Under the pieces are notes generated by a model. That model did not search any database. It saw only the letters and a program-made list of their open reading frames with translations, and was not told the DNA's origin. 44,752 bases of DNA, taken from Bifidobacterium breve (GTDB lineage Bacteria > Actinomycetota > Thermoleophilia > Solirubrobacterales > Solirubrobacteraceae). Location: positions 1 to 44,752 of the forward strand of contig CAMCUD010000034.1 of assembly GCA_945878865.1 (NCBI GenBank). The letters run 5' to 3'. This document shows, in pieces, positions 35,159 through 38,201 of this stretch (its first letter is position 1; each line of letters begins with the position of its first letter). The position numbers and the translations under genes were made by a program.

Positions 35159-36270
35159 CCGCTCCCGCGATCGCCGTAGTCATGGCGACCTACGGGGCAC
35201 GCGAGTGGACCGAGCGGGCGCTCGATGCCGTCTCCGCACACACGTCGGTTCCACACGAGGTCGTCGTCGTCGACAACGCCTCGACCGACGGCACACGCGA
35301 CATGATCCGCGAGCGCTTCCCCCGTGTGCGGCTGGTCGCCAACGAGGAGAACGTGGGGTACGGCGCCGCGAACAACCAGGCGGCGCGGCTCACGTCCGCG
35401 CCGGTGCTCGCGCTGCTCAACAGTGACGCGATCGTTCCCCCCGGCTGGGCCGAGCCGCTGCTCGGCGCGCTCAGGCGTCCGGGCGTCGGCGCGGTGGTGC
35501 CGACGCTGGTTCACCTCGACGGGCGCATGCAGACTGCCGGTGCGGTGCTCGGCGCCGACGGGAGCGTCCTCGCACTGGGCAACGGCGCCGACGCTGCGGA
35601 CCCGTTCTATGCGTTCACGCGCGTCTGCGACTTCGGCGCCGGCGCGTGTCTGCTCGTACACACGACGGACTTCCTGGCGGTCGGCGGGTTCGATCCGATC
35701 TACGACCCGGCGTACTTCGAGGACGCGGACCTGTGCCTCAAGCTCGAGGCCCGGGGACAGCGGACGGTCTACGTCCCCGACGTGCGGGTGGAGCACCTGC
35801 AGTTCGCCTCATCCGACCCGGACCGCGCCGCGGAACTCTTCCTGCGCAGTCGGGCGCCGTTCCTCGAGCGCTGGGCTGATCACCTCGCAGTTCGGCGACT
35901 GCCTTCGGTCCTGCCCGAACATCCGGCCCGCACGCTTGCCGCGCGAGATGCGCTGACCCGCGCGCGTGTGCTCGTCGTGTGCGGGGATGCGTTCCCCGAC
36001 CCTCGCATGGCGACGGAGCTGGCCACGCTCGCAGACCCGGTCCGGGAACTTCGCGTGACGGTCATCGCGGCGGCAGGTGACGCTGCTGCCTGGTCGCGCT
36101 GCGGGGCCGAGGCGGTCGTGAGCGAGGATCCCGCCGCGGTTCTCGCGGCGAGGGCCGGGCACTACGACGTCGTGGTGGGCGCGGACCCGCGCATCGCGCG
36201 AGCGCACCAGCCGCAGGCGCTGACGGTCCCGACAGCGCTGGCCGCTGCCGCTGCCGTCGCGGATCTCTAG
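35155..36270 (+). CDS. GT2 glycosyltransferase (WbbL-like)
   Basis: 371 residues. Residues 1 to about 260 form a full GT-A domain of the rhamnosyltransferase-like GT2 group: IAVVMATYGAREWTERAL, VDNASTDGTRDM, LLNSDAIVPPGW as metal site, and FDPIYDPAYFEDADLCLKLE as the acceptor motif. The last 100 residues (LVVCGDAFPDPRMATELA onward) look like a partial Rossmann-type fold without a clear active site. It is coupled to the upstream small coiled-coil gene by a four-base overlap. Its stop shares the palindrome CTAG with the stop of the convergent GT. The donor could be a deoxyhexose, but this is not fixed by sequence. Confidence 0.9.
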   Translation: MTAPAIAVVMATYGAREWTERALDAVSAHTSVPHEVVVVDNASTDGTRDMIRERFPRVRLVANEENVGYGAANNQAARLTSAPVLALLNSDAIVPPGWAEPLLGALRRPGVGAVVPTLVHLDGRMQTAGAVLGADGSVLALGNGADAADPFYAFTRVCDFGAGACLLVHTTDFLAVGGFDPIYDPAYFEDADLCLKLEARGQRTVYVPDVRVEHLQFASSDPDRAAELFLRSRAPFLERWADHLAVRRLPSVLPEHPARTLAARDALTRARVLVVCGDAFPDPRMATELATLADPVRELRVTVIAAAGDAAAWSRCGAEAVVSEDPAAVLAARAGHYDVVVGADPRIARAHQPQALTVPTALAAAAAVADL

Positions 36271-37250
36271 GCCTGCGGCGGCGGTCCGCCGCCCTCGCGC
36301 CAGAGGCGGCTGGGCCAGATCTCGGCGACGACGTCGTCGATCATCCCCATCCGCACGCCGATGCGGAGCATGCGGCGAATCCGAGACCAATCGCCGGCGA
36401 CGTTGAACAGTCCGTCCCCGAGCTCGGCGCAGATCCATCGCATGTGCGCGTGCATCAGCGTCGCCTGGAACGTGATCGTCCCGTACTGCGGAGGAAAGCT
36501 GAGCAGCAGCTCTTCGCTCCCGTCGGGATGGTGTTCCCGGACGCGGCCATAGCAGAGCTCCAGATCGCGGTCTCGGGCGCCGGCGAGCAGCTTCTCGATG
36601 TGGTCGGGCGTGAAGGTGTCGTCGTCGTCGAGCGCGCAGATCCATGCGCCACGGGCGCGCCGGTGGGCCTCGTTACTCGGCGGACCGCCGGCGACGTACC
36701 ACCGTTCCGGAGGCTCCGGGTACGGGCCCCGCATCGGCAGGTTCACGAAGGTCACGCGGGGATCGGCGACACCGCGGATCGCCCGTTCGTGCTCGGGGGA
36801 GGACGCATCGCCGACGATGATGAGCTCCCAGCGCTCGTACGTCTGCGCGAGCACCGACGGGATGGTGCGCTCGAGCAGCGGGCCCGTGTGCTCGTACGTT
36901 GCGATGCAGACGCTGACGAGCGGCTCGGGATCCTCGAACGCGCGCGCGTACTCCGCGGTCTCGCGCAGGCGCCAGAGCTCCTGGCGCTGTGCGGGCTCGT
37001 CGTCGCGCAGGAGCTGCAGGATCTCGACGGTGCGCTCGTGCTCGGCGCGGTCGGCGGCGGCGCGGGCGGCCTCGGCGCGATCGAGCGTGTCGAGCCGGGA
37101 GCTGACGGCGTCCAGGCGCTCGGTGAGCTCGGTGACCGATGCGGTCAGCGCGGCGAGGTCCTCGCGTAGCCCGGCCACGCCCTCGTTCGTCTCGTACAGG
37201 CGCCGTGCGGCGTTGCGGGCTCCGCGGACGGGCTTGGGCCGGGGGGACAC
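36267..37250 (-). CDS. GT2 glycosyltransferase with N-terminal coiled coil
   Basis: 327 residues from GTG 37250, chosen because a TAGCTT box ends seven bases upstream and the upstream frame looks non-coding. Residues about 15-100 form a coiled coil (LREDLAALTASVTELTERL). About 110-300 is a GT2 domain with VSVCIATYEHTGPLL, IVGDASSPEHE and the acidic cluster LDDDDTFTPDH. The coiled coil may tether it to other enzymes of the locus. It is divergent from the acetyltransferase-like gene with only 24 bases between the starts, and convergent with the preceding GT. Confidence 0.88.
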   Translation of the reverse strand: MSPRPKPVRGARNAARRLYETNEGVAGLREDLAALTASVTELTERLDAVSSRLDTLDRAEAARAAADRAEHERTVEILQLLRDDEPAQRQELWRLRETAEYARAFEDPEPLVSVCIATYEHTGPLLERTIPSVLAQTYERWELIIVGDASSPEHERAIRGVADPRVTFVNLPMRGPYPEPPERWYVAGGPPSNEAHRRARGAWICALDDDDTFTPDHIEKLLAGARDRDLELCYGRVREHHPDGSEELLLSFPPQYGTITFQATLMHAHMRWICAELGDGLFNVAGDWSRIRRMLRIGVRMGMIDDVVAEIWPSRLWREGGGPPPQA

Positions 37251-37257
37251 GGGGCGC

Positions 37258-37263
37258 AAGCTA
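37258..37263 (-). promoter_or_regulatory. Putative -10 box TAGCTT, 7 bases before GTG at 37250
   Basis: Minus-strand TAGCTT-N7-GTG. Its upstream TA pair (37262-37263) is also the TA of the plus-strand box TAGCAT, so the two -10 elements interlock. Confidence 0.6.
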
Positions 37264-37267
37264 GCAT
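37262..37267 (+). promoter_or_regulatory. Putative -10 box TAGCAT, 7 bases before ATG at 37275
   Basis: AAGCTAGCATCCGCGCC-ATG. It shares bases 37262-37263 with the opposing minus-strand box. Confidence 0.6.
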
Positions 37268-37274
37268 CCGCGCC

Positions 37275-38198
37275 ATGGGGACCGACCGCGGCGGCTACGG
37301 CCATCCGTCGTACGCCGCGGCGCTCGCGGAGTTCGGCGCTCCGAGAGCGCTCCCGCGCAGCGGCGGGACGCTCCTCGTCCGCGAGATCGACGGCGCAGGC
37401 GCCTCGGACGCAATGGGTGCATATCCGCTGTTCGCCTGCGACGACTGGGGCGGACTCGCCGCCGACCTGCAGGAGCTGGAGGGCGAGCTCGTCAGCGTCG
37501 CGCTCGTCGCCGACCCGTTCGGCGGATGGACCGTCGAGCAGCTCAGTGCGGCGTTCCCCGACCGGCAGATCGCGTTCAAGGAGCATCACGTCGTCGATCT
37601 CGCCGACGGTGATCCGGTGGCCCGCGCGACGAAGCATCACCGGCAGTACGCGCGACGCGGGCTCCGGGCCGTCGCCGTCGAGGAGGTCGCCGACCCGCCG
37701 TCACTGCTGGACGAGTGGGACGCGCTCTACGGCGGCCTCGTCGCCCGCCACGGGATCACCGGCATCTCGGCGTTCTCGCGTGCCTCGTTCGCGGGCCAGC
37801 TCGCGGTTCCCGGGATCGTCGCGTTTCGCGCGACAGCGCTGGACGACGGCGAGCTTGCCGGCGCGGCGCTCTGGTACCTCGACGGCGACGTCGCGTACTG
37901 GCACCTCGCCGCCTACAGCGAGTGCGGGTACCGTCTCGATGCCTCCTACGCGCTCATGGCCACGGCCCTCGAGCGCTTCGCGCAGCCCGGCGGCCCTCGG
38001 TGGGCCGGTCTCGGCGCGGGCGCGGGTGTCGACGCATCGGGCGCGGGGCTCGACCGCTTCAAGGCCGGCTGGGCGACCGAGACACGCACCGCCCACTTCT
38101 GCGGCCGCATCCTCGACCACGCGCGGTACCGCGCGCTGTCCCCCGAGCGGGGGGACACCGCGTTCTTCCCTGCGTATCGCGCCGGGGGTGCGGGGTAG
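37275..38198 (+). CDS. GNAT/FemAB-like acyltransferase
   Basis: 307 residues. The central part (HHRQYARRGLRAVAVEEV, then LLDEWDALYGGLVARHGITG and LAGAALWYLDGDVAYWHLAAYSE) matches the Acetyltransf_6/FemAB-like GNAT superfamily found in exopolysaccharide loci. Such proteins transfer an acyl or aminoacyl group to a sugar amine or hydroxyl. The substrate is unknown. A DegT aminotransferase three genes downstream could supply an amino sugar for acylation. Its stop TAG forms the start of the next gene's -10 box. It has its own TAGCAT-N7 promoter. Confidence 0.82.
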   Translation: MGTDRGGYGHPSYAAALAEFGAPRALPRSGGTLLVREIDGAGASDAMGAYPLFACDDWGGLAADLQELEGELVSVALVADPFGGWTVEQLSAAFPDRQIAFKEHHVVDLADGDPVARATKHHRQYARRGLRAVAVEEVADPPSLLDEWDALYGGLVARHGITGISAFSRASFAGQLAVPGIVAFRATALDDGELAGAALWYLDGDVAYWHLAAYSECGYRLDASYALMATALERFAQPGGPRWAGLGAGAGVDASGAGLDRFKAGWATETRTAHFCGRILDHARYRALSPERGDTAFFPAYRAGGAG

Positions 38199-38201
38199 GA
38201 T
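38196..38201 (+). promoter_or_regulatory. Putative -10 box TAGGAT, 7 bases before ATG at 38209
   Basis: TAGGAT-N7-ATG; its TAG is the stop codon of the preceding gene. No ribosome-binding site is visible. Confidence 0.6.

What the first reader, a model, noticed from the sequence alone, without database searches (positions are those of the whole stretch)
37248..37277. Two opposing -10 boxes interlocked on a CTAG palindrome
Between the GTG of a minus-strand GT (37250) and the ATG of a plus-strand acyltransferase (37275) there are only 24 bases. Minus TAGCTT occupies 37258-37263 and plus TAGCAT 37262-37267, sharing the TA pair, each exactly seven bases from its start codon. One polymerase-binding spot would fire a leaderless mRNA either way, and the two openings must exclude each other. 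Divergent transcription from symmetric -10 elements is known; one in which both outputs are leaderless coding transcripts is unusually compact.
Basis: partly seen in the sequence, partly recalled or inferred. Interest (0 to 1): 0.65.

Follow-up and report, generated by a model that had tools for sequence, protein, structure and literature searches.

The report
Two-way promoter between back-to-back genes
A 24-base gap between two opposite-facing genes holds two interlocked promoter boxes that probably start a leaderless message each way; the arrangement is a known type of two-way promoter, but this soil-bacterium family uses it repeatedly and keeps some copies over long evolutionary times.

Summary
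The sequence observation is exact: minus TAGCTT (37263-37258) and plus TAGCAT (37262-37267) share one TA, and each lies 7 nt from its start codon (GTG 37250, ATG 37275). The core is ANNNTANNNT; CTAG is incidental. Chance given the gap is about 3e-4. The genome (genus of Svornostia abyssi, Solirubrobacterales) has TANNNT at leaderless spacing before about 25% of testable starts, 7 nt being the commonest spacer. The interlocked form is not unique: 19 pattern matches genome-wide, 13 between divergent coding starts; 9 of the 13 keep it in S. abyssi. Across 16 family genomes it is 6.6-fold over a shifted-spacer control, and 11 of 25 divergent menB/menE pairs keep both boxes with in-frame starts. 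The geometry matches the published 23-bp class of bacterial bidirectional promoters. A bidirectional core promoter with two leaderless outputs is the best reading. But the focal copy is not conserved: S. abyssi has the same gene pair yet keeps at most the minus box. Opposing polymerases exclude each other, but published basal activity is usually too low for that to matter. No transcript data exist here. Verdict: a real member of a known kind; the lineage-wide double-leaderless use is the new part.

The parts
37258..37267 (.). Interlocked core AAGCTAGCAT (ANNNTANNNT); T37262/A37263 used by both boxes
   Evidence: geometry equals the 23-bp bidirectional class described in PMC12825309
37258..37263 (-). 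minus-strand -10 box TAGCTT, 7 nt before GTG 37250
   Evidence: T at -13 is the genome's most frequent leaderless position
37262..37267 (+). plus-strand -10 box TAGCAT, 7 nt before ATG 37275
37251..37274 (.). whole 24-bp intergenic spacer; any -35 contact for either direction would fall inside the opposite gene's first codons, and no -35 motif is visible in this genome's leaderless promoters
36267..37250 (-). family 2 glycosyltransferase, 327 aa, GTG start at 37250
   Evidence: PF00535 7.5e-18; 50% identity to the S. abyssi orthologue from residue 10 on; codon-model start
37275..38198 (+). GNAT-like (Acetyltransf_6) acyltransferase, 307 aa, ATG start
   Evidence: PF13480 2.1e-4, 0.1 bit below cut-off; 56% identity to S. 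abyssi orthologue; ATG is first start codon in frame

Best explanation
The 24-bp spacer is a bidirectional core promoter. Two housekeeping-type TANNNT -10 boxes on opposite strands share one TA step, so RNA polymerase can load in either orientation but only one at a time. Each orientation is predicted to start at or one base before the start codon, giving a leaderless glycosyltransferase mRNA leftward and a leaderless acyltransferase mRNA rightward. Shown: sequence, spacing, genome-wide enrichment of such boxes at leaderless spacing, recurrence and conservation of the same architecture at other gene pairs. Inferred: activity of both directions at this locus, exact start sites, leaderless translation, and mutual exclusion.
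For: Exact geometry. TANNNT with its T at -12..-17 precedes 247 of 991 testable starts, peaking at -13 (66) against about 1-7 per background position. No -35 signal is visible in these promoters, so a lone -10 is normal here. Same form at 13 divergent coding pairs in this genome; composition-matched control boxes give 0-1 double-box divergent pairs against 22 for TANNNT. 276 matches in 16 family genomes against 42 with start codons moved 10 bp outward. 9 of 13 pairs keep it in S. abyssi. 11 of 25 divergent menB/menE pairs keep both boxes with in-frame starts. The A that completes the reverse box is rare in one-way leaderless promoters (10/251; 10.6-13.4% background) but 11/32 in tight divergent ones, Fisher 1.1e-6. 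Published 23-bp class.
Against: At the focal pair itself S. abyssi keeps only an AAGCTA (minus box); its plus box is TATCAA, the acyltransferase start lies further off, and the GT frame has no ATG/GTG/TTG near it. No other held family genome has the pair to test. The depletion of the symmetric A in one-way promoters was not reproduced in a small, hit-centred S. abyssi sample (8/51). No RNA data.
Confidence: 0.65

Rival explanations
1. Only one direction is a real promoter here (the minus-strand one being likelier); the other box is a chance or decayed match, and that gene is expressed otherwise.
For: S. abyssi keeps AAGCTA but not the plus box; both flanking genes lie in a variable polysaccharide region.
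Against: Chance of completing both boxes at 7/7 is about 3e-4 given the gap; the acyltransferase ATG is the first start in frame, and no other plus box stands at leaderless spacing before it.
Confidence: 0.2
2. The two boxes are independent directional leaderless promoters that merely overlap because the genes are close, without any selected two-way function. This overlaps mechanistically with the best explanation (both directions fire) and differs only on whether the coupling is selected, so its confidence is not exclusive of it.
For: Leaderless promoters are so common here (25% of testable starts) that tight divergent pairs must overlap their boxes; TA is self-complementary, so sharing it costs nothing.
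Against: The shared-TA register is kept at 9 of 13 pairs in S. abyssi and 11 of 25 menB/menE pairs, which argues for maintenance of the arrangement, though that could follow from keeping each promoter separately.
Confidence: 0.35
3. The near-palindrome is an operator for a regulator of the polysaccharide cluster rather than a promoter.
For: GCTAGC is a palindrome in the middle of the spacer.
Against: The 13 comparable spacers share no bases beyond A..TA..T (plus weak C/G preferences), so there is no common operator.
Confidence: 0.04
4. The true glycosyltransferase start is elsewhere (for example the GTG at codon 25 or an upstream in-frame start), so only the acyltransferase transcript is leaderless.
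For: In S. abyssi the orthologous frame lacks a standard start at the aligned position and opens at a later GTG.
Against: The codon model picks GTG 37250; the conserved GARNAA stretch begins at residue 10; upstream starts would run through the acyltransferase gene.
Confidence: 0.12

Closest known systems
Bacterial bidirectional promoters, 23-bp class (Warman et al.; described in PMC12825309 and PMC10268837)
   Same: Divergent starts either side of a shared -10 element. The 23-bp spacing follows exactly from two TANNNT boxes sharing TA with 7 bp from -7 to +1. Some drive two mRNAs.
   Different: The commonest E. coli form is 18 bp (TANNNTA). Here both outputs are predicted to be leaderless, so promoter and intergenic region coincide, and in this family the 23-bp form outnumbers the 18-bp form at leaderless spacing (276 vs 121).
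Leaderless genes with TANNNT about 12 bp upstream of the start (Zheng et al. 2011, PMC3160421; M. tuberculosis, PMC3898074)
   Same: Same box, same distance, no -35 motif, about a fifth to a quarter of genes.
   Different: Those surveys treat one direction at a time.
M. tuberculosis prpD / Rv1129c divergent leaderless pair (PMC3898074)
   Same: Adjacent divergent genes, both with mapped leaderless transcripts.
   Different: Their starts are 120 bp apart (1254510 and 1254630), so two separate promoters, not an interlocked one.

Membership tests
Bidirectional promoter (shared -10) | Opposed -10 elements overlapping so that divergent starts lie 7-25 bp apart | tested here: met
   boxes share TA; predicted starts 23-25 bp apart; definition
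Bidirectional promoter (shared -10) | Transcripts initiated in both directions from mapped TSSs | not testable with these tools
   no RNA data held
Bidirectional promoter (shared -10) | Architecture not due to chance | tested here: met
   controls far below observed
Leaderless gene promoter | TANNNT with first T about 12-13 bp before the start codon | tested here: met
   both boxes at -13, the genome mode
Leaderless gene promoter | mRNA 5' end at the start codon | not testable with these tools
   no RNA data
Conserved interlocked double-leaderless promoter (class seen here) | Same form retained at the orthologous gene pair | tested here: not met
   focal pair in S. abyssi lacks the plus box; met at 9 of the 13 pairs of the class and at 11 of 25 menB/menE pairs

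The most novel reading that the evidence does not exclude
In Solirubrobacteraceae, start codon - interlocked two-way -10 - start codon is a standing, selected promoter type of about 24 bp that fixes tight head-to-head gene pairs, including menB/menE across many genera, while one-way leaderless promoters avoid the single A that would make them two-way.
Probability: 0.5. Interest if true: 0.55.

Novelty: new member of a known kind. Interest (0 to 1): 0.42.

Why it matters
If both directions fire, 24 bp serve as complete promoter and intergenic region for two genes, with no 5' leaders in either mRNA. The conserved menB/menE cases give natural replicates for asking whether shared -10 elements are kept for co-expression, for mutual exclusion or only for compactness, and whether one-way promoters are under selection to stay asymmetric.

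Tried and rejected
Reversed-pattern control: it first suggested the 18-bp form (TANNNTA) was not enriched; the shifted-spacer control showed it is (121 vs 19 in 16 genomes), so the reversed control (AT is commoner than TA) was dropped as misleading. First gene caller missed the glycosyltransferase; fixed by letting starts compete. Orthologues outside the genus: genus g18 copies and 19 loci in other taxa show the acyltransferase is widespread, but in g18 the glycosyltransferase is not beside it, so they do not test the promoter; the loci of other phyla were not checked for the neighbour. Reading CTAG as the element: rejected. Original Warman 2021 paper not held; its content is taken from two later papers of the same group. 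Phylum-wide survey: forward counts are near the reversed control in most other families, not interpretable without shifted controls.

Full report
What is there. The spacer 37251-37274 reads GGGGCGCAAGCTAGCATCCGCGCC between CAC (GTG on the minus strand) and ATG. The minus box TAGCTT (37263-37258) and plus box TAGCAT (37262-37267) share T37262/A37263 and each stands 7 nt from its start codon. Both genes look real: a family 2 glycosyltransferase and a GNAT-like acyltransferase, in a polysaccharide-type cluster with a GT4/methyltransferase fusion, a hexapeptide transferase and a DegT aminotransferase. The ATG is the first start codon in its frame; an independent codon model picks both starts.

Where it is. 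The closest held relative is Svornostia abyssi J379 (Solirubrobacterales, Thermoleophilia, Actinomycetota), same genus by the genome search.

Is the box meaningful in this genome? In 1.64 Mb of the same genome, 991 starts have at least 15 nt of non-coding sequence upstream. TANNNT has its first T at -12 to -17 in 247 of them (60, 66, 47, 39, 24, 11 by position), against about 1-7 at other positions up to -40. The maximum, -13, is the spacing of both focal boxes. No -35 motif is visible around these boxes. This fits the published account of leaderless genes in Actinobacteria (PMC3160421) and M. tuberculosis (PMC3898074).

Is the interlock chance? With an intergenic dinucleotide model, ANNNTANNNT at the exact place has probability 3.1e-4 given the gap; 0.0043 were expected in the sample and 3 seen, including the focal one. 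Composition-matched control boxes (ATNNNT, TTNNNA, ATNNNA) give 0-1 double-box divergent pairs, TANNNT gives 22 (part of that sample was chosen for pattern hits).

Is it unique? No. Genome-wide, CAY-N6-9-ANNNTANNNT-N6-9-RTG has 19 places, of which 13 lie between two coding starts by the codon model. S. abyssi has 23 places. Nine of the 13 pairs carry the same form at the orthologous pair, the proteins aligning from their first residues; for two of them (C1:180379, C3:234637) one S. abyssi partner aligns only over its first 51-54 residues, and for C68 only one partner was matched. In 16 family genomes there are 276 matches against 42 with the start codons moved 10 bp outward. The 18-bp form TANNNTA gives 121 against 19. 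Of 25 divergent menB/menE pairs within the order, 11 keep the interlocked core with in-frame start codons on both sides, mostly at 7 and 7 nt.

Signature of two-way use. In one-way leaderless promoters of this genome, A four bases before the box's T (the A that completes the reverse box) occurs in 10 of 251, against 13.4% near other intergenic TA and 10.6% near other intergenic TANNNT; in tight divergent promoters it occurs in 11 of 32. The two members of one interlocked pair are not independent, so the tight-divergent count is inflated. A small S. abyssi sample centred on pattern hits did not show the depletion (8 of 51). I treat this as suggestive. An intrinsic dislike of A at -16 by the polymerase is an alternative.

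The focal copy is weaker than its class. S. abyssi keeps the divergent glycosyltransferase and acyltransferase (50% and 56% identity), but its spacer has AAGCTATCAAC: minus box kept, plus box lost. Its acyltransferase starts further away, and its glycosyltransferase frame has no ATG/GTG/TTG near the box. No other held genome of the family has the pair. The shared AAGCTA could be chance (roughly 8% for any minus box in 40 bp, from P(TANNNT)=2.0e-3 per position).

Mechanism. Two -10 boxes sharing TA put the starts 23 bp apart when each start is 7 bp from position -7. Warman et al. list 18, 10 and 23 bp as the preferred spacings of bidirectional promoters, so this is that configuration. With 7 nt between box and start codon the predicted starts are 37274/37275 and 37251/37250; a purine start favours the first base of each start codon. 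Opposed polymerases cannot bind together, but in all five E. coli promoters tested basal activity was too low for competition to show.

Verdict. A real sequence feature, most likely a bidirectional core promoter with two leaderless outputs: a member of a known kind. The part not found in the literature searched is the recurrent, partly conserved double-leaderless form in this family.

Noticed in passing
L195-L224 (menB/menE loci); G000:C23:31846-31875: A divergent enoyl-CoA hydratase (menB-like) / AMP-ligase (menE-like) pair keeps an interlocked two-way leaderless promoter in 11 of 25 genomes. It is a better experimental target than the focal pair.
   Followed up: yes
G000 sample, 1.97 Mb: One-way leaderless promoters are poor in the A at about -16 that would complete a reverse -10 box (10/251); not reproduced in a small S. 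abyssi sample.
   Followed up: partly
window 38196-38201: The acyltransferase stop codon TAG is also the start of a TANNNT box (TAGGAT) 7 nt before the ATG of the next gene (38209), suggesting a leaderless promoter that doubles as a stop codon.
   Followed up: no
window 36267-36270: The minus-strand glycosyltransferase is a single inverted gene in a plus-strand cluster; its 3' end overlaps the 3' end of the preceding plus-strand glycosyltransferase by 4 bp.
   Followed up: no
S. abyssi G001:C1:2817512 and 2927447; G000:C15:44890: Some pattern hits are GAACATATGTTC palindromes, which from memory resemble Gram-positive SOS (LexA) boxes; they add non-promoter noise to the ANNNTANNNT counts.
   Followed up: no
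L226-L244: Relatives of the acyltransferase (35-53% identity) occur in MAGs labelled Chloroflexi, Planctomycetota, Verrucomicrobia, Calditrichaeota and Proteobacteria, suggesting a widely transferred gene.
   Followed up: no
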